Shown in pieces: positions 16,600-39,456 of a stretch of DNA of 39,777 bases. A model generated the notes under the pieces. That model searched no databases. It was not told the origin of the DNA and saw only the letters and a list, made by a program, of their open reading frames with translations. The stretch covers positions 1 to 39,777 of the forward strand of contig REDA01000028.1 of assembly GCA_007693745.1 (NCBI GenBank). The letters are read 5' to 3'. The DNA is from Balneolaceae bacterium. Its GTDB lineage: Bacteria > Bacteroidota > Rhodothermia > Balneolales > Balneolaceae. Both the position numbers and the translations under genes were made by a program. The first letter of the stretch is position 1; each line of letters starts with the position of its first letter.

Positions 16600-17622
16600 T
16601 CAGACAACCTCTCCTATCTCAATAAACGGTTCTTCTAAATCAGAACAAATTTTTGTCACTTGTTTTAATGAATCGGGACTGCAAACTGCGATTAACCCGA
16701 TCCCGAGATTAAATGCTGAGCGCATATCCTCTTCCGGAACGTTACCGGTCTCCTGAATCAGATTAAAAAGTGCCGGACGTTCCCAGGAGTTCCAGTTCAC
16801 TTTCAGGGACTGACCCTCGTTTAAAATTCGTTTTGTATTACCGATGATACCCCCGCCTGTTATATGAGAAAATCCGTGGATTCCATCGGTTTCCTTCAGT
16901 TTTCGAATAAGGGAAAGATAGGATTTATGAACCGAGAGCAGTTCCATTCCAAGCGGCTGATTCATTCCAGGCAGCAGATCATCCGGATGATACGTACTGA
17001 ACAGAACTTTTCTGGCCAGTGAAAAGCCGTTTGTATGCAGGCCTGTGCTTTTAAAACCTAAAAGTTTATCCCCCTTCTGAATACTCTTACCTGTAATAAG
17101 TTTTTCCCTGTCCACTACCCCTACGATGGTTCCTGCCAGATCAAATTCACCCTCTTTGTATATATCCGGCATTTCAGCCGTTTCACCACCAATCAATGCC
17201 ACACCATTCTCTCTGCATGCTATGGTAAATCCTTTAATCACATCATATCCAATACCTTTATCAAGCTTACCTGTTGAAAAGTAGTCCAGAAAAAACAGGG
17301 GTTCTGCTCCGCATACGGCAATATCATTCACACAGTGATTCACCAGATCCTGCCCTACCGTATCGTAAATTTCCATGTTAAAGGCGACAATCAATTTTGT
17401 ACCCACCCCGTCCACACTGGATACCAGAACCGGTTCCCTGTATCCGGTAAAATCAGCTGAAAAGAGTCCTCCAAAACCACCAATATTCGATAAGACCCTG
17501 GCACTGTGTGTTTCACTCACAAGCTCTTTAATGGAATCAACAAGCTCCTCACCTGCCTTAATATCTACACCTGAATCTTTGTATGTGATCGGTTTTTTCT
17601 GATTCTCTGACGTTTCACTCAT
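16600..17622 (-). CDS. purM: Phosphoribosylformylglycinamidine cyclo-ligase (AIR synthetase)
   Basis: Fifth step of de novo purine synthesis: ATP-dependent ring closure of FGAM to aminoimidazole ribotide in the cytosol. Recognisable blocks are TYKDSGVDIKAGEE at the N-terminus, SSVDGVGTKL, the region HCVNDIAVCGAEPLFFLDY, GGETAEMPDIY and ITGGGIIGN, all in the expected order for PurM. I chose the ATG at 17622, which has AGAGG 7 bases upstream and begins MSETSENQ. A GTG at 17685 leaves an atypical 21-residue extension. It is the first gene of a unit with the AtuA-like gene, and its upstream region is the origin-like DnaA-box cluster. Confidence 0.96.
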   Translation of the reverse strand: MSETSENQKKPITYKDSGVDIKAGEELVDSIKELVSETHSARVLSNIGGFGGLFSADFTGYREPVLVSSVDGVGTKLIVAFNMEIYDTVGQDLVNHCVNDIAVCGAEPLFFLDYFSTGKLDKGIGYDVIKGFTIACRENGVALIGGETAEMPDIYKEGEFDLAGTIVGVVDREKLITGKSIQKGDKLLGFKSTGLHTNGFSLARKVLFSTYHPDDLLPGMNQPLGMELLSVHKSYLSLIRKLKETDGIHGFSHITGGGIIGNTKRILNEGQSLKVNWNSWERPALFNLIQETGNVPEEDMRSAFNLGIGLIAVCSPDSLKQVTKICSDLEEPFIEIGEVV

Positions 17623-17699
17623 CTGCTTGCCTCTGAATTTCTGATTTTCCGGATTAAAAAGATCGAATTGTATAAATAGTGCCACTGCCTGATAAAAAA

Positions 17700-18185
17700 T
17701 TACCAGCGTAAGGTTTTGGATCGAAGTTCTCCGGTTTTTTCATTCATCCGCAATCTTATTTTTCAAAACCAATTCAAACGGTCTCTAAATATATAAAGTT
17801 TAGTTTACCTTTTAAAGAGAGGTTATCCACAGCAGAATTCTATCAGAATTAAATTTCATAATCTCTTTCTTAGTAGTAGTACACTGTGGAGATGTGAATA
17901 AAAAAGTTATGCGGATGGAATGTAAATCACTGTTGATAATGTTGATAATTATGTTAATACTAAGTATAATAAAATTAATAATATAAATTTTTAATTATCA
18001 AGTTATAAACAACATATATAGATTATACCATAAGTTAACTCAAAACTGTTCACAGGAGGGGTATTTTCTGAATGCTGTGGAAAACAGTATTCTAATGTTT
18101 ATAGATGTGGATAGATTCTGATATTTTTAAAAAAATTCTGTTGTCCACAACTTACTGAACCGTTATCCACATTATTTTCCACACT
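17700..18185. other. oriC: Candidate chromosomal replication origin (oriC): DnaA-box cluster with AT-rich segment
   Basis: A gene-free region between divergent purM and dtd. Two perfect TTATCCACA boxes occur at 17823-17831 and 18163-18171. Other consensus-like boxes are 17893-17901 (minus, TTATTCACA), 18076-18084 (minus, TTTTCCACA) and 18175-18183 (TTTTCCACA). One-mismatch boxes are 17931-17939 and 17940-17948 (tandem TGTTGATAA), 18106-18114 (minus) and 18141-18149. Between the two groups lies a segment (about 17937-18035) that is roughly 85-90% A+T by eye, suitable as an unwinding element. TAGTAGTAGTA at 17871-17881 resembles DnaA-trio motifs. dnaA itself is not in the window. Function is inferred from this pattern. 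Confidence 0.75.
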
Positions 18186-18623
18186 ATGAGAATTGTTATT
18201 CAGAGAGTAAATAGAGCATCAGTCACGGTTGATGGAAGAAAAACAGGTTCTATTGGAAAGGGACTTCTTTTACTTGTGGGGATCCATCATACGGACAGTG
18301 AAGAGCAGTGTATATGGTGTGCGGAAAAAATTAGTAACCTCCGGATTTTTGAAGATGATGAGGGAAAAATGAACAGATCTCTTTTGGATGTAAAGGGAGA
18401 TGTACTGGTGGTTTCTCAGTTTACACTCTATGGAAATACAAGAAAGGGAACGCGTCCCAGTTTTGTGGAAGCGGCTCCTCCGGAGATTGCAGAGCCCCTG
18501 TATGATTTTTTTATTGAGAGGTTAAAGATGAATGACAGGAAAGTGGAATCAGGAATTTTTGGTGCGATGATGGATGTTGAACTGGTCAATGATGGACCTG
18601 TCACGCTGATTCTTGAAAAGTAA
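18186..18623 (+). CDS. dtd: D-aminoacyl-tRNA deacylase
   Basis: Hydrolyses D-amino acids mischarged onto tRNA, a translation quality-control step in the cytosol. The N-terminal [17 protein letters not shown], the catalytic [17 protein letters not shown] block (residues about 78-94, with the SQFTLY active-site motif) and the C-terminal [16 protein letters not shown] motif (the cross-subunit Gly-Pro-type loop region) are all present. The length of 145 residues is exactly typical. The start ATG sits 2 bp after the last DnaA box, so its promoter must lie within the origin-like region. The stop codon overlaps the next start (TAATG), indicating translational coupling. Confidence 0.97.
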
Positions 18624-19533: not shown

Positions 19534-20088
19534 TCAGGAGAGAGACTGCAGAATCCTTCCAAAAATTTCATCAATACTGCCGGTTCCGTCAATCACTTTA
19601 ACAATCCCTTTTGCATTATAGTGGTTCAGAACCGGAGCGGTTTCCTCATGATAGACATTCAGTCGGGTTTGAATTCCTTCCCGTGTGTCATCGGATCGTC
19701 CCTGTCCCCGGCTCAGGATTCTGCGGATCAGTTCCTCTTCGGGCACAGAGAGGGTAATAAATGCATCCACATTTTTCCCTCTGGATTGAAGATAGGTATC
19801 CAGGGCTTCAGCCTGGGCCACAGTTCTTGGAAAACCATCGAAAATGACACCATCATCATATATTTGATGATTCAGTTCATCAGCGACAAGCTCCACTACG
19901 GTTTCATCAGGAACCAGTTTTCCCTGATCCATAATGGATTTCACTTTTAAACCAAGGGGTGTATTGGCTTTGATGTTCTCCCTGAAAATGTTACCGGTTG
20001 ATAGGTGAGGCAGCTTCAGGTGTTCAATAAGCTTTTCAGCCTGTGTACCTTTACCTGCTCCCGGAGCACCAAATAGGATAATATTCAT
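19534..20088 (-). CDS. adk: Adenylate kinase (short-LID type)
   Basis: Balances AMP, ADP and ATP in the cytosol. The P-loop GAPGAGKGTQ lies at residues 7-16, the AMP-binding region HLSTGNIFRENI near 34, DGFPRT near 84 and the arginine-containing LID remnant RGQGRSDD near 125. At 184 residues it is the short form that lacks the zinc-finger-like LID found in many Gram-positive enzymes. The ATG start is clear. It lies 169 bp downstream of rplS on the same strand, so it may end the ribosomal-protein unit or have its own promoter. Confidence 0.96.
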   Translation of the reverse strand: MNIILFGAPGAGKGTQAEKLIEHLKLPHLSTGNIFRENIKANTPLGLKVKSIMDQGKLVPDETVVELVADELNHQIYDDGVIFDGFPRTVAQAEALDTYLQSRGKNVDAFITLSVPEEELIRRILSRGQGRSDDTREGIQTRLNVYHEETAPVLNHYNAKGIVKVIDGTGSIDEIFGRILQSLS

Positions 20089-20214
20089 GGATGAAATAGT
20101 CTGAATGACGGTGAGTGATACAGGTTCTTCTGATGGTATTCAGCACAGAAAGTTACCAGTCTTGATTCTGGTCTTTGAAGATACAGCAACAAGACCGGTA
20201 CCTGTGACCAGGGA

Positions 20215-20235
20215 GGTGATGATCTGCTCATCACC
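20215..20235. other. Perfect hairpin between rplS and adk
   Basis: Eight-base arms (GGTGATGA and TCATCACC) around a 5-base loop lie 23 bp beyond the rplS stop codon. There is no T-tract, so transcription could continue into adk; mRNA processing or stabilisation is a possible role. Confidence 0.5.
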
Positions 20236-20257
20236 CAGGGTAAAAGAATCTGCCGGA

Positions 20258-20626
20258 TTATTTGGTTTTGTTCTCTTTACCCGTTGTATCGAGTTCTTTA
20301 ATACGTGCAGACTTTCCTCGCCTGTCGCGCAGATAGAACAATTTGGCTCTTCTGACCTTACCCCGTTTTTTCACTTCAATTTTAGCGATAAAGGGTGAGT
20401 GGAGTGGAAAAATACGTTCAACACCAACACTGCCGGACATCTTACGCACAATAAAGGTTTTGTTGGCTCCGCTTCCTTTCTCGCTGATCACAACACCCTG
20501 ATATTGCTGTATTCTTTCTTTTTCCCCTTCCCGAACGCGGTAGTGTACGTTTATGGTGTCGCCGGATTTAAATTCCGGAAGATCATCCCGTACAACGGTC
20601 TGTTCAATAAGTTTCATTTTATCCAT
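20258..20626 (-). CDS. rplS: 50S ribosomal protein L19 (bL19)
   Basis: Structural protein at the 30S-50S interface. The family blocks are clear: [15 protein letters not shown], the conserved [29 protein letters not shown] and the basic [23 protein letters not shown]. The length of 122 residues is normal, with a short hydrophilic tail. The ATG at 20626 has GAGG 8 bases upstream. It lies 23 bp after trmD and is the last of the canonical rpsP-rimM-trmD-rplS order. Confidence 0.97.
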
Positions 20627-20649
20627 GGTCGTTTCCTCGTTACTGGGGT

Positions 20650-21345
20650 TTAGTTTTTCTTGGTATAAAGTTTATATAAATCGGGTCGTTTCTTTTTTGT
20701 TCGTTCTTCGGCTCTGCTTTGCCGCCACTGTTCAATTTTTTCATGATTACCTGAAAGCAGTACATCGGGTACAGATGCTCCGCGGAAGGTCGCCGGCCGT
20801 GTATAGACCGGAGCTTCCAGGAGGTTCTCCTGGAAAGAATCGGTCAGGGCACTTTCAGCATCTCCGAGCACACCCGGTAAAAGCCGGACAATGGCATCTG
20901 TCATCATCAGTACCGGAATTTCACCGCCGGATAAAACCACATCACCTACAGAAAATTCTCTGGTGATCAGTTCATCCCTTACCCTTTGATCGACTCCTTT
21001 ATAGTGTCCGCACAGAAACAGAAGATGTTTGCGAACGGAAAGTTCATTGGCATCTTTCTGTCTGAAGAGTTCGCCGTCGGGTGCGGTGAAGATAATTTCA
21101 TCGTAGGTACGTTCGGATGTAAGCTTATCGATACAGTCGAAAATCGGCTGCGGGGATAAAACCATCCCGGCTCCGCCCCCGTAGGGATAATCATCGATTT
21201 TTTTATGCCTGTCTGCCGAGTATTCCCTGAGATCATGCACCACAATCTGCACCTTCTGTTTATCGATGGCACGTCTGATGATACTGTGGCTCAAGGGACT
21301 GGCAAGAAGATCCGGCACACCCGATAAAATGTCGATTCTCATCAT
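20650..21345 (-). CDS. trmD: tRNA (guanine-N1-)-methyltransferase
   Basis: Methylates G37 next to the anticodon in tRNAs, preventing frameshifts, using S-adenosylmethionine in a SPOUT (trefoil-knot) fold. Diagnostic segments are [32 protein letters not shown] and the knot sequence [16 protein letters not shown], followed by [16 protein letters not shown]. At 231 residues it is of normal length. It begins 2 bp after the rimM stop, with two adjacent ATGs (MMRIDIL); the first is used here. The basic C-terminal tail is typical. Confidence 0.97.
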
Positions 21346-21347
21346 CT

Positions 21348-21890
21348 TCAGAGTTCGCTTAACTGATCCAGATTTAATCCTGTAAGGGTTTTGTCTCTGT
21401 GATCTGTTTCTGAAATATACTCATCTACCATCGGTATCAGAAGCAATCCTGTTTTGGTTTTTACTTCCAGTATGGGGTGAGCCGGATTTTCTATGATATC
21501 CAGCACTTCACCGTACAGGGAGCCGTTGTAGTACACCAGGTATCCGATCGGGGATTCATCACTGACTATTCTATTTTTTTGGATCAGCTGAACCTTTTTC
21601 TGATCGGCCCACAGGCTTTTATCGGATGCTTTCTCTGCATCACTACGGTTGGTAATCCTGTCAAATTTTACAAAGAACGATTGTTGATTCCGCTTGTTTT
21701 CTGTCTGAAGATCTTCCACCCGAAGGGGGATGAATCCAGGAATGTTCTCTTTTAAATAAACAAGAGAGTTTTTTGCAAGCAGATCACTGTAATCGGGTGA
21801 ATCCGGAATCACCTTCACCACTCCATGGAGTCCGCGGGCCTTTCCAATTCGTCCGATTTCAACATACCGGCCTGAGTTTTCTACTCCCAT
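21348..21890 (-). CDS. rimM: Ribosome maturation factor RimM
   Basis: Helps 30S subunit assembly, binding ribosomal protein S19 and the 16S 3' domain. The N-terminal domain shows IGRIGKARGLHGVVKVIPDSP, the usual G-x-HG-x-G/V-x-V motif of RimM. The C-terminal PRC-barrel contains PIGYLVYYNGSLYGEVLDI and AHPILEVKTKTGLLLIPMV. At 180 residues the length is typical. It lies 15 bp downstream of rpsP. The ATG at 21890 has only a weak ribosome site, consistent with coupling to rpsP translation. Confidence 0.94.
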   Translation of the reverse strand: MGVENSGRYVEIGRIGKARGLHGVVKVIPDSPDYSDLLAKNSLVYLKENIPGFIPLRVEDLQTENKRNQQSFFVKFDRITNRSDAEKASDKSLWADQKKVQLIQKNRIVSDESPIGYLVYYNGSLYGEVLDIIENPAHPILEVKTKTGLLLIPMVDEYISETDHRDKTLTGLNLDQLSEL

Positions 21891-21905
21891 AACCGGGTTG
21901 TTCTA

Positions 21906-22892
21906 TTACTCTTCCTGCTTGCTTTCCCAGGCGCGCAGTACCGTTACACGCTCTTCTTCAGCAGGAACAAATCCTTTCAGCTCTTCAACGGAATTATCCT
22001 TAATGTGAGCAATGGCATCGGTTGCTGTCATCTCTGTTGAAAGCTGTGAAACCGAATTGGTTTCAGGTGCTTTTTCAGTCTCTTGTTCAGGAGCAGCTTC
22101 TGCAATCTCTGCTACCTCTTCCCTGGCAACCGGAGTTTCCTCAGCTACGGGCTCTTCTTCAGTTTGCGCCACCGGCTCTGCTTCGGTCTTCACTTCAGCA
22201 GTCTCCTCTTCGGCGGATTCGGGTTCTGCTGTTTCCACCGTTGCTTCTTCAGCTTTCACCTCTTCCTGTTCGCTTTCGGCTTCCAGAGCGTCAATTTCTT
22301 CGCTTACTTCATCAGCAGCCGTTTCGGGCTCCGTCTCTTCGGCAGCGGCAACAGCTTCTTCTGCCTTCTCTGCTTCGGCGGCGGTTTCCTCAGCGGCTTC
22401 GCTTGCTGCTTCAGCTTGTTCGGCAGCTTTCGCTTCCTCCTCTTTTTTCTTCTCAAGAGCTTTGGCAGCGGCAGCAGCTTTCTCCTCCAGTTTTTTCTTG
22501 AATTCCTGCTCTTCAGCTTTCAGCAGTTCTTTCTGCTGGGCTCTGCGGCTTGCATCTTCATCTGAAGATTTGGATTCGCGTGCCGCTTTCCACTCAGCGA
22601 GTGCAGCTTCAATTTCTTCCTCCGTTTTTCCCCATCGTACCAGGTGCATTCTGTAGAGAATTCCCTCACTTTTGAGAATACTGCGAACGGTGTCACTTGG
22701 CTGCGCGCCGATTTTAAGCCAGTGCATCACTCTTTCCGCGTCAAGAGTCAGCTCTTTCTGTTCGCTTACATTGTCGAAGCGGCCAAGGCGTTCGATCACG
22801 CGTCCGTCGCGTGGTGACCGGCTGTCAGCAACCACAATGTGGTAAAATGGCCGTTTTTTTCTTCCTTTTCGTTGTAGTCTTAGTTTAATCAA
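21906..22892 (-). CDS. rpsP: 30S ribosomal protein S16 (bS16) with very long acidic C-terminal extension
   Basis: Residues 1 to about 90 are a normal S16 (KLRLQRKGRKKRPFYHIVVAD, SPRDGRVIERLGRFD, WLKIGAQPSDTVRSIL). The protein then continues to 328 residues. A charged probable coiled coil covers about 105-165 and a low-complexity Glu/Ala-rich stretch runs to about 285. A final compact-looking piece follows (TDAIAHIKDNSVEELKGF...RVTVLRAWESK). Ordinary S16 is about 80-90 residues. Translation starts at a TTG, with AGGAA 7 bases upstream and no in-frame ATG nearby. It leads the rimM-trmD-rplS genes. The tail role is unknown. Confidence 0.95.
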   Translation of the reverse strand: MIKLRLQRKGRKKRPFYHIVVADSRSPRDGRVIERLGRFDNVSEQKELTLDAERVMHWLKIGAQPSDTVRSILKSEGILYRMHLVRWGKTEEEIEAALAEWKAARESKSSDEDASRRAQQKELLKAEEQEFKKKLEEKAAAAAKALEKKKEEEAKAAEQAEAASEAAEETAAEAEKAEEAVAAAEETEPETAADEVSEEIDALEAESEQEEVKAEEATVETAEPESAEEETAEVKTEAEPVAQTEEEPVAEETPVAREEVAEIAEAAPEQETEKAPETNSVSQLSTEMTATDAIAHIKDNSVEELKGFVPAEEERVTVLRAWESKQEE

Positions 22893-22923
22893 TGGTGTGT
22901 TCCTGTGCGTTTTAGTTTAGTTA

Positions 22924-23062
22924 GGGAGCTTTTAAAAACCGTTCTTTTACCCAATATCTTCGTTGCCGCAAATTTAAATCCTTACGTATGGTAAATACGC
23001 TGCGGTTTTAAAGTTGCTTCCGCCTTGATCTTGTGCAAAATCCCTGGTTTTTCAAAACCCCC
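22924..23062. repeat. Dispersed inverted-repeat element, copy 2
   Basis: The second copy of the element seen at 10147 and 33608, in the same orientation on the plus strand. It fills the gap between ffh and rpsP, ending 28 bp beyond the ffh stop codon. The internal stem is TTTACC (22946-22951) with GGTAAA (22990-22995), where the copy at 33608 has TTTGCC/GGCAAA. Termini are GCTTTTAAAAACC and GGTTTTTCAAAACC. Confidence 0.85.
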
Positions 23063-23090
23063 AGTTAAATAAATTAGGTACTCTTCTGGT

Positions 23091-24431
23091 TTAGCGTCCG
23101 AGCGGGAGATTTTTAAGCCCTTCCATCGCGCGGCCCATTTTCCCCATTTTGCTCATCGTTTTCATCATTTTCTTCATCTGTTCAAACTGCTTGATCAGTT
23201 CATTAATCTCCCGAACGTGCGTTCCGGATCCTTTAGCAATACGCCTTCTCCGGCTGCCGTTGAGAAGGTCCGGATTTTTCCGTTCTTCCGGGGTCATGGA
23301 GTTGATAATGGCTTCAATCGGTTTAAATGTATCTTCATCCAGGTCTGCATCCTTTACAGCTTTGCTGGCTCCCGGAATCATTCCCACCAGATCGGTGATA
23401 CTTCCCATTTTCTTGATCTTCTGAATCTGCTCGTAAAAATCTTCCAGATCGAATTTATCCGAGCGAATTTTTTTCTGAAGGTCCTGTGCCTGTTTTTCGT
23501 CAAACTCTTTCTGGGCTTTTTCCACAAGGGAAACCACATCACCCATTCCCAGGATACGCTGGGCAAGCCGGTCAGGATAGAAAGGAGAGAGTGCATCCAG
23601 CTTCTCACCTGTGCTCATAAACTTAATCGGTTTCTCAACTACCGTCCGGATAGAGAGCGCCGCACCCCCCCGGGTGTCCCCATCCATTTTAGTAAGCACC
23701 ACTCCGTCAAAATTAATCGCGTCGTTGAACGCTTTGGCCGTATTCACCGCATCCTGGCCGGTCATGGCATCTACAACAAAGAGAATTTCATGGGGATTGA
23801 CCGCCTTTTTGATTTCAGCAACCTCCTCCATCATTTTTTCATCCACGTGCAGGCGCCCGGCCGTATCGATAATCACTGTATCCAGGGCCAGGCTCTTTGC
23901 CATCGAGACGGCTTCTTTTGCCACCCGAACAGCATCTTTCTGCTCGATGGAATAGACAGGGATATTGATTTCACCCGCCAGGGTTTTCAGCTGGTTGACC
24001 GCAGCCGGGCGATAGACATCCGCTGCAGCAAGGATCGGATTTCTGTTATTCTCTTTCTTCAGGTAGTTCGCCAGCTTGGCCGCAAAGGTGGTTTTTCCGG
24101 AACCCTGTAGCCCTGCAATCAGGATGACCGTTGGCGGGGTGTGAGCCACAGCAAGAGTCTGCCTCTCCTCACCCAGAATTTTCACCATTTCATCATAGAC
24201 AATCTTGGTAAACTGCTGACCGGGATTGACGCTGGTGAGCACGCCGGAGCCCATAACACGATCCTTGATATCGCTTGTAAACTGACGGGCTACCTCAAGG
24301 TTTACGTCGGCATCAAGAAGAGCACGGCGAATTTCGCGAACGGTTTCGGCGATATTCACATCAGTTATGCGCGACTGCCCTTTCAGGGACTGCACGGCTG
24401 ATTCTATTTTGGAAGACAAATCTTCAAACAT
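23091..24431 (-). CDS. ffh: Signal recognition particle protein Ffh (SRP54)
   Basis: A GTPase that binds hydrophobic signal sequences as they leave the ribosome and delivers them to the FtsY receptor. An N-terminal helical domain is followed by the G domain with GLQGSGKTTFAAKLA (G1) near residue 108, DTAGRLHVDE (G3) near 190 and TKMDGDTRGGAALSI (G4) near 248. The C-terminal methionine-rich M domain carries SRRRRIAKGSGT and the run QMKKMMKTMSKMGKMG. The length of 446 residues is normal. The gene is followed by a dispersed repeat, and its upstream region has a pair of DnaA-box-like sites. Confidence 0.98.
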   Translation of the reverse strand: MFEDLSSKIESAVQSLKGQSRITDVNIAETVREIRRALLDADVNLEVARQFTSDIKDRVMGSGVLTSVNPGQQFTKIVYDEMVKILGEERQTLAVAHTPPTVILIAGLQGSGKTTFAAKLANYLKKENNRNPILAAADVYRPAAVNQLKTLAGEINIPVYSIEQKDAVRVAKEAVSMAKSLALDTVIIDTAGRLHVDEKMMEEVAEIKKAVNPHEILFVVDAMTGQDAVNTAKAFNDAINFDGVVLTKMDGDTRGGAALSIRTVVEKPIKFMSTGEKLDALSPFYPDRLAQRILGMGDVVSLVEKAQKEFDEKQAQDLQKKIRSDKFDLEDFYEQIQKIKKMGSITDLVGMIPGASKAVKDADLDEDTFKPIEAIINSMTPEERKNPDLLNGSRRRRIAKGSGTHVREINELIKQFEQMKKMMKTMSKMGKMGRAMEGLKNLPLGR

Positions 24432-37665: not shown

Positions 37666-37739
37666 GGTCCGGTAGTTCAGTTGGTTAGAACGCCTGCCTG
37701 TCACGCAGGAGGTCGAGGGTTCGAGTCCCTTCCGGATCG
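37666..37739 (+). tRNA. tRNA-Asp (GUC anticodon)
   Basis: A full cloverleaf. The acceptor GGTCCGG pairs with CCGGATC (one G-U), and the D stem is GTTC/GAAC. The anticodon stem CCTGC/GCAGG has loop CTGTCAC, reading anticodon GTC. The T arm is GAGGG-TTCGAGT-CCCTT, where the outer pair is G-U-type, and the discriminator base is G. CCA is not encoded. It is followed 5 bp later by an intrinsic terminator that also belongs to a 178-bp tandem repeat. Confidence 0.96.
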
Positions 37740-37744
37740 CAAGA

Positions 37745-38496: not shown

Positions 38497-39456
38497 TCAC
38501 CTATCCAGCGGGCTTTTTACGCCTTTACCTCCCCGGTTTAGCACATGCGTGTAAATCATTGTGGTCTTAACACTATTATGGCCGAGCAGATCCTGTACTG
38601 TACGAATATCATAACCGTTCTTCAGCAAGTGAGTTGCAAAGGAATGCCGAAATGTGTGTGGGGTGACATGTTTTTGGATGTCTAAATTATTAATGGATCT
38701 GCTAACGGCTCGCCGTACATCACGCTGTGAAACATGGTACCTGTGGTGAACACCTGATCGTGGATCAACCGATCTTTTTTTAGATGGAAACAGATATTGC
38801 CATCGCAATTCTTTCGAAGCGTTTGGGTACTTCCGTGAAAGTAAATTCGGCAGAATAGTGCCTCCATAGCCCTTATTCAAATCATTTTTATGAAGTATTT
38901 TCACTTTTCCAATTTGTTTTTGAATTGGATGGATTAATGACTCCGGCAGCATGGTTACCCTGTCCTGTAAACCCTTTCCATTACGAACCGTAATCTGCCT
39001 GTAGGTTAAATCAATATCCAGAATTCTGAGCCTCAGAGCTTCAGAAATTCGCAGCCCTGAACCGTAGAGCAGACTCACAACCAGGCTGGGCACTCCTTCC
39101 AGTAATTGAATGACCGATATCGCCTCCCGCTCTGTTAGAACAACAGGGAGTCTTTTAGGTTTTTTTGCCCTTTTCAGTTTGTCTAGGTGTAGCAGTGGTT
39201 GACTGAGTATGTGGGAATAAAGAAACACAATGGCCGATAATGCCTGATTTTGAGTAGATGCAGCTACATTAAGATCATTTGCCAGATAGTTCAGATAGTC
39301 AACTACATCCTTCTCCGTCAGATATTTTGGATGAGTGAGGCCATGATACCGTACAAATCTGACAATCCACTGAGAGTAGGTTTTCTCTGTGCTGTAGCTA
39401 TAATTTCTACGCCTAATCTCTTCTTTAAGCCGGGTTAATAATTTCTTCTCATTCAT
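38497..39456 (-). CDS. intI: Integron-type integrase (IntI-family tyrosine recombinase)
   Basis: A site-specific recombinase. The core-binding domain covers about residues 1-100 and the catalytic domain the rest. Catalytic residues are Arg in GSGLRISEALRLR, His-x-x-Arg in PHTFRHSFATHL, His in LLGHNSVKTT and the nucleophile Tyr in MIYTHVLNRGG. Between them lies the segment diagnostic of IntI rather than XerC/D: LPNLLSRKYPNASKEL and WQYLFPSKKRSVDPRSG, aligning to the extra helix region of class 1 integrase. The end RGGKGVKSPLD is also IntI-like. At 319 residues it is intact. In integrons the attI site and cassettes lie on the 5' side of intI, which here is the right edge of the window. Confidence 0.92.
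   Translation of the reverse strand: MNEKKLLTRLKEEIRRRNYSYSTEKTYSQWIVRFVRYHGLTHPKYLTEKDVVDYLNYLANDLNVAASTQNQALSAIVFLYSHILSQPLLHLDKLKRAKKPKRLPVVLTEREAISVIQLLEGVPSLVVSLLYGSGLRISEALRLRILDIDLTYRQITVRNGKGLQDRVTMLPESLIHPIQKQIGKVKILHKNDLNKGYGGTILPNLLSRKYPNASKELRWQYLFPSKKRSVDPRSGVHHRYHVSQRDVRRAVSRSINNLDIQKHVTPHTFRHSFATHLLKNGYDIRTVQDLLGHNSVKTTMIYTHVLNRGGKGVKSPLDR

What the first reader, a model, noticed from the sequence alone, without database searches (positions are those of the whole stretch)
17700..18185. Likely chromosome origin next to dtd and purM, away from dnaA
Nine DnaA-box-like 9-mers fall in about 360 bp, two of them perfect TTATCCACA, on both strands. A strongly AT-rich ~100-bp core follows a tandem TGTTGATAA pair, and a TAGTAGTAGTA trio-like motif sits beside a box at 17893. 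Genes to the left mostly run left; many to the right run right. A box cluster this dense in an otherwise gene-free gap is not expected by chance. The origin of this lineage thus appears to sit between purM and dtd.
Basis: partly seen in the sequence, partly recalled or inferred. Interest (0 to 1): 0.75.

Follow-up and report, generated by a model that had tools for sequence, protein, structure and literature searches.

The report
Balneolales chromosome origin between purM/dtd
A 363-base stretch between two unrelated housekeeping genes is very probably where this bacterium (order Balneolales) starts copying its chromosome; the same stretch marks the start point across the order, hundreds of kilobases from dnaA, the gene where origins are usually looked for.

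Summary
The finding holds up. Nine DnaA-box 9-mers (within one mismatch of TTATCCACA, two perfect) lie at 17823-18183; shuffles never exceed 4. A profile of this 363-bp array finds one clear match in nearly every searched genome of the order: 26 of 30 relatives and all 30 order members in a phylum sample. It sits between purM and dtd in 23 of 26 checked cases. Two independent tests agree. In three single-contig chromosomes and one 2.16-Mb contig the GC-skew switch fits best at the element; on a fifth contig it lies within 10 kb. dnaA fits worse in all five. parS centromere sites lie 8-70 kb from the element in the 12 order genomes where this can be measured. Tandem boxes, a short spacer and GAT trios match the published basal unwinding system. 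In one relative the array sits in another gap without purM or dtd, so it is not their promoter. Origins away from dnaA are a known kind; what looks new is this location, probably a change specific to Balneolales. The window genome's own skew could not be measured (100 contigs) and no experiment was possible.

The parts
17821..18183 (+). origin element (oriC): conserved DnaA-box array with trio motif, 363 bp
   Evidence: Ungapped length 355-366 in 21 aligned relatives.
17823..17831 (+). DnaA box TTATCCACA, left border of the array
   Evidence: TTATnnACA within one mismatch in 21 of 21 aligned sequences.
17832..17870 (.). probable duplex-unwinding stretch (inferred)
   Evidence: Lies beyond the trios seen from the tandem boxes; AT 74% here, mean 77% in relatives. 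Function inferred from PMC8287927.
17871..17881 (+). DnaA-trio motif TAGTAGTAGTA (3'-GAT-5' repeats)
   Evidence: Three GAT trios in 17 of 21 aligned sequences, two in the other 4; single copy in the window.
17885..17901 (-). tandem DnaA boxes beside the trios: 17893-17901 TTATTCACA and the weaker 17885-17893
   Evidence: Within one mismatch of TTATnnACA in 21 of 21 and 15 of 21.
17931..17960 (-). boxes 17931 and 17940 (TTATCAACA) and weak box 17952 (GTATTAACA)
   Evidence: 17940 and 17952 conserved in 21 of 21 within one mismatch; 17931 is not conserved.
17949..18035 (.).
   Evidence: 87% AT here, mean 78% in relatives.
18003..18011 (+). weak box TTATAAACA
   Evidence: Within one mismatch of TTATnnACA in 21 of 21.
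18076..18114 (-). boxes 18076 (TTTTCCACA) and 18106 (CTATCCACA)
   Evidence: 19 of 21 and 18 of 21 within one mismatch.
18141..18183 (+). boxes 18141 (TTGTCCACA), 18163 (TTATCCACA), 18175 (TTTTCCACA), right border
   Evidence: 19, 21 and 16 of 21 within one mismatch.
16600..17685 (-). purM, left flanking gene
   Evidence: TIGR00878; neighbour of the element in 24 of 26 order genomes.
18186..18623 (+). dtd, right flanking gene
   Evidence: TIGR00256; neighbour of the element in 24 of 26 order genomes.

Best explanation
17821-18183 is the DnaA-dependent chromosomal replication origin (oriC) of this Balneolaceae bacterium. Shown by sequence: a conserved array of about eleven strong and weak DnaA boxes at fixed spacing, with a trio module; coincidence with the skew switch and with parS in relatives. 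Inferred: DnaA from the distant dnaA gene binds the strong outer boxes, fills the weaker ones, and from the tandem boxes at 17885-17901 (minus strand) extends onto the GAT trios at 17871-17881, opening the duplex leftward; two replisomes then leave in both directions and ParB at nearby parS moves the copies apart.
For: Box cluster far above chance. Array of nearly constant length, with boxes kept while bases between them change. One match per genome in 26 of 30 order genomes across five families and a strong match in all 30 order members of a 198-genome phylum sample; two of these also had a second, weak partial match. Two-arm skew fits: best switch at the element in G119, G237 and G043 (single contigs) and in G011 (2.16-Mb contig); dnaA worse by 3.6, 8.6, 15.0 and 17.5 log units; in G023 the best point is 315 kb against the element at 305 kb (1.9 units) and dnaA at 152 kb (21 units). 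parS sites: 14 kb (G043), 19 kb (G023), 26 kb (G119), 28-39 kb (G237), 68 kb (G011) from the element; about 8 (G003), 16 (G030), 25 (G186), 28 (G032), 41 (G036), 47 (G039), 48 kb (G005). The trio module meets the published BUS rule. In G055 the array, with five trios, stands apart from purM and dtd. The genome has one complete DnaA with the domain IV motif RDHSTVIHA, matching B. subtilis DnaA over its folded domains.
Against: In the window alone the best skew change point is at 25 kb, 7 kb right of the element; a leftward ribosomal gene block at 19.5-24.4 kb probably shifts it. The skew support is from relatives, sampled in 20-kb stretches, with weak skews (0.03-0.1). In G119 the margin over dnaA is modest (3.6 units). 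Four of 30 order genomes gave no match: G010 and G017 have no dtd in the assembly, G029's dtd is at a contig end, and G042 has boxes beside dtd but was missed. The G055 case rests on a 9-kb contig of an 84% complete assembly. No experiment.
Confidence: 0.95

Rival explanations
1. The real origin lies at dnaA, whose upstream region also has DnaA boxes; the purM-dtd array is a secondary DnaA-binding site.
For: Conserved boxes upstream of dnaA: -343, -332, -181 and -84 in most genomes. Origins next to dnaA are the commonest arrangement (PMC4285127, PMC10225481).
Against: dnaA lies inside one skew arm in the five genomes fitted, worse than the element by 3.6 to 19 log units. parS sites lie near the element and far from dnaA where both are on one contig. 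The four conserved dnaA boxes all face one way and no TAGTAGTAG trio is present, which fits autoregulation.
Confidence: 0.03
2. The array is a DnaA-titration or DnaA-reactivation site (like datA or DARS of E. coli) or a DnaA-controlled promoter of dtd or purM.
For: Dense boxes between two divergent genes; dtd starts 3 bp after the last box.
Against: Such a site has no reason to sit at the skew switch and near parS in every genome. In G055 the array persists without purM or dtd, and dtd there has no boxes. It has the trio module expected for unwinding. It is the richest cluster on the contig scanned whole.
Confidence: 0.02

Closest known systems
Bacillus subtilis oriC basal unwinding system (BUS: DnaA boxes 6/7, spacer, DnaA-trios; PMC8287927, PMC6669920)
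   Same: Tandem boxes, a spacer of about 4-5 bp to the first GAT trio, three GAT trios in the expected strand and direction; DnaA with the same domains.
   Different: Not beside dnaA; only two GAT trios in 4 of 21 aligned sequences; function not assayed.
Escherichia coli oriC (away from dnaA; strong boxes bounding arrays of weak boxes; PMC4285127)
   Same: Strong boxes at the borders and weaker ones between, on both strands at fixed spacing; origin separated from dnaA.
   Different: Different flanking genes, and a trio module in addition; much larger distance to dnaA (about 150-450 kb in relatives). IHF, Fis and SeqA sites were not examined.
Other origins not next to dnaA as handled by Ori-Finder and DoriC (PMC10225481)
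   Same: Identified by the same evidence: skew minimum, box cluster, conserved neighbour genes.
   Different: No paper in the held library links oriC with purM and dtd, and none found describes a Balneola origin; DoriC entries themselves could not be queried.

Membership tests
bacterial chromosomal origin (oriC) | cluster of DnaA boxes in an intergenic region, beyond chance | tested here: met
   9 against at most 4 in 5000 shuffles.
bacterial chromosomal origin (oriC) | cumulative GC-skew minimum / strand-bias switch at the site | tested here: met
   In five relatives at or within 10 kb of the element; not testable in the fragmented window genome, where the window's own best change point is 7 kb to the right.
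bacterial chromosomal origin (oriC) | one per chromosome, conserved among relatives | tested here: met
   One strong match per genome; 26 of 30 and 30 of 30 order members; two genomes have an extra weak partial match.
bacterial chromosomal origin (oriC) | parS centromere sites nearby (usual, not defining) | tested here: met
   8-70 kb in 12 order genomes; in the window genome parS is on another contig.
bacterial chromosomal origin (oriC) | replication starts there in living cells | not testable with these tools
   Needs marker frequency or an autonomous-replication assay.
basal unwinding system (BUS) | DnaA box (2 or fewer mismatches), spacer of at most 16 bp, at least three NAN trios | tested here: met
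   Window: TTATTCACA with one mismatch, three GAT trios; 19 of 21 aligned sequences have three or more NAN trios by the scan.
basal unwinding system (BUS) | DnaA opens the duplex at the trios | not testable with these tools
   Needs a strand-separation assay.
origin adjacent to dnaA | dnaA within a few kb | tested here: not met
   dnaA is on another contig here and about 150-450 kb away in relatives.

The most novel reading that the evidence does not exclude
The Balneolales origin moved as a compact unit away from dnaA in the ancestor of the order, and can move again (G055 has it in another gap), while the conserved box region upstream of dnaA is the remnant of the ancestral dnaA-linked origin. 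In four of five sampled genomes from other orders of the class, parS lies within roughly 20-60 kb of dnaA, and dtd is far from dnaA in all five.
Probability: 0.3. Interest if true: 0.6.

Novelty: new member of a known kind. Interest (0 to 1): 0.48.

Why it matters
It gives a precise, testable origin for a whole order for which no origin description was found in the held literature, and shows that numbering these chromosomes from dnaA (as in G043) misplaces the start. A ready profile allows replication rates to be estimated from metagenome coverage and replication arms to be assigned. The array, kept at near-constant length while its filler bases change, is a natural data set for which DnaA boxes matter.

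Tried and rejected
Outside the order the profile gave only weak partial matches (best 4.8e-7), treated as background. A bipartite origin made of this element plus the dnaA region was rejected because of the 150-450 kb distance. Rfam: only a tRNA in the window. Literature searches for oriC with purM and dtd, Balneola, Salinibacter/Rhodothermus gave nothing on point. Early misreading: I first suspected that G043's family lacks the array at dtd, from the box counts of one family member (G055); the profile finds it at dtd in G043. The first, coarse skew sampling of G043 left the switch anywhere between 0.26 and 0.65 Mb; denser sampling puts the best fit at the element.

Full report
WHAT WAS CLAIMED. 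Nine DnaA-box-like 9-mers in about 360 bp, an AT-rich core, a trio-like motif, and divergent gene directions, read as a chromosome origin between purM and dtd, away from dnaA.

CHECK OF THE OBSERVATION. The sequence and pattern searches confirm nine 9-mers within one mismatch of TTATCCACA at 17823-18183, on both strands, two perfect. In 5000 dinucleotide shuffles of the gap the mean is 0.21 and the maximum 4. purM (TIGR00878) and dtd (TIGR00256) flank it. The window is the whole of contig C98 in a 2.87-Mb, 100-contig assembly. The only dnaA is on contig C34, so its distance cannot be measured here.

LINEAGE. The best named relative by Dtd is Balneolaceae bacterium MES10 (L112, 66% identity), which carries the same array. 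Its genome (G244) gives a profile match at the same contig position, with the same E-value and genome size, as G144, which one search lists as same family as the window. The window is therefore placed in Balneolaceae, order Balneolales (taxonomy); this is inferred from that coincidence.

CONSERVATION. Upstream of dtd the relatives carry the same array with boxes at the same offsets. In 21 aligned sequences the ungapped length is 355-366 bp. Box positions and the trio are conserved (many bins of 0.75-0.9 identity) while filler falls to about 0.5. A sequence-only profile (R1) searched in 30 whole genomes gives one match in each of 26, covering five families. In a phylum sample of 198 genomes all 30 order members match; the other 168 give only 6 weak partial matches. 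Of the 26 places, 23 lie between purM and dtd, two are cut by a contig end with one of the two genes present (L211, L217), and one, in G055, lies in a different gap (L204), while that genome's dtd has no boxes. The array is thus a unit of its own and not a promoter of its neighbours.

STRAND BIAS. In G011 all ten sampled 20-kb stretches before 885 kb have negative skew and all eight from 905 kb to 1.72 Mb are positive; the last two are near zero. The element is at 894,860. In G023 the cumulative minimum over a contiguous 390 kb is at 298,952 and the element at 305,318. Two-arm fits give the best switch at the element in G119, G237 and G043 (single contigs) and in G011; dnaA is worse by 3.6-17.5 log units. 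(The circular fits allowed a terminus only 40-60% of the circle away, so the antipodal terminus is partly assumed; the raw samples change sign between 2.45 and 2.80 Mb in G119, whose antipode is 2.70 Mb.) In G023 the element is 1.9 units below the best point and dnaA 21 below. The window itself changes at 25 kb; the leftward adk-rplS-trmD-rimM-rpsP-ffh block between 19.5 and 24.4 kb is the likely reason.

CENTROMERE. The parS palindrome TGTTTCACGTGAAACA (one mismatch allowed) occurs in only one to three places per order genome, mostly as a close pair, and these lie 8-70 kb from the element in all 12 order genomes where both are on one contig. That parS usually lies near the origin is established (PMC7333895). 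Where dnaA is on the same contig it is about 150-450 kb from the element.

MECHANISM. The published BUS rule is a DnaA box, a spacer of at most 16 bp and at least three NAN trios, GAT being commonest (PMC8287927). On the minus strand here TTATTCACA (17901-17893) and a weaker overlapping box lead into the complement of TAGTAGTAG (17871-17879). Nineteen of 21 aligned sequences have three or more consecutive NAN trios by the scan and 17 have three GAT. The genome's DnaA has the domain IV motif RDHSTVIHA and aligns with the DnaA of solved chain 8btg, which I take from memory to be that of B. subtilis. Shown: the sequence modules and their conservation. Inferred: DnaA loading, leftward opening and bidirectional forks.

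dnaA REGION. Most dnaA genes of the order carry boxes at conserved offsets near -343, -332, -181 and -84, all on one strand, without TAGTAGTAG. This looks like autoregulation of dnaA; it could also be the remnant of an older origin. In five genomes from other orders of the class dtd is not near dnaA, and parS is within roughly 20-60 kb of dnaA in four of them, so the purM-dtd position is probably a change specific to Balneolales. This last step is inference; outgroup origins could not be read.

VERDICT. It is a chromosome origin of a known kind at a location not found described in the held literature (DoriC itself could not be searched).

Noticed in passing
window 38497-39456 (-), tRNA-Asp at 37666-37740: Tyrosine recombinase with Phage_integrase and Phage_int_SAM_4 domains about 0.8 kb from a tRNA-Asp gene; possible integron-type or tRNA-targeting integrase near the contig end.
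   Followed up: no
window 21906-22892 (-): Ribosomal protein S16 of 328 aa, about four times the 78-position core domain; the long extension is unexplained.
   Followed up: no
window 19534-24431 (-): adk-rplS-trmD-rimM-rpsP-ffh block runs toward the origin, head-on to the fork, within 6.5 kb of it; it distorts the local skew.
   Followed up: partly
relatives, e.g. G003:C8:270992 and 271146; also G030, G032, G186, G005, G011, G023, G237: parS sites come as a pair exactly 154 bp apart in many genomes of the family; in the window genome the pair is on contig C16 at 42398 and 42561, 163 bp apart.
   Followed up: partly
L204 (G055:C208:964-1327): Origin array with five trios in a different gap, without purM or dtd; the origin has apparently moved in that genome.
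   Followed up: partly
L003 10825-11092: Conserved DnaA boxes, all on one strand, upstream of dnaA throughout the order.
   Followed up: partly
G194:C1:26 and G194:C1:1718062: A genome of the same class has two full-length DnaA genes.
   Followed up: no
window 18010-18072: Two non-box motifs in the array are strongly conserved in relatives: ACACCTAT (window ATACC-AT) and AGTTATTCTTTT (degenerate in the window); possible sites of another origin-binding protein.
   Followed up: no
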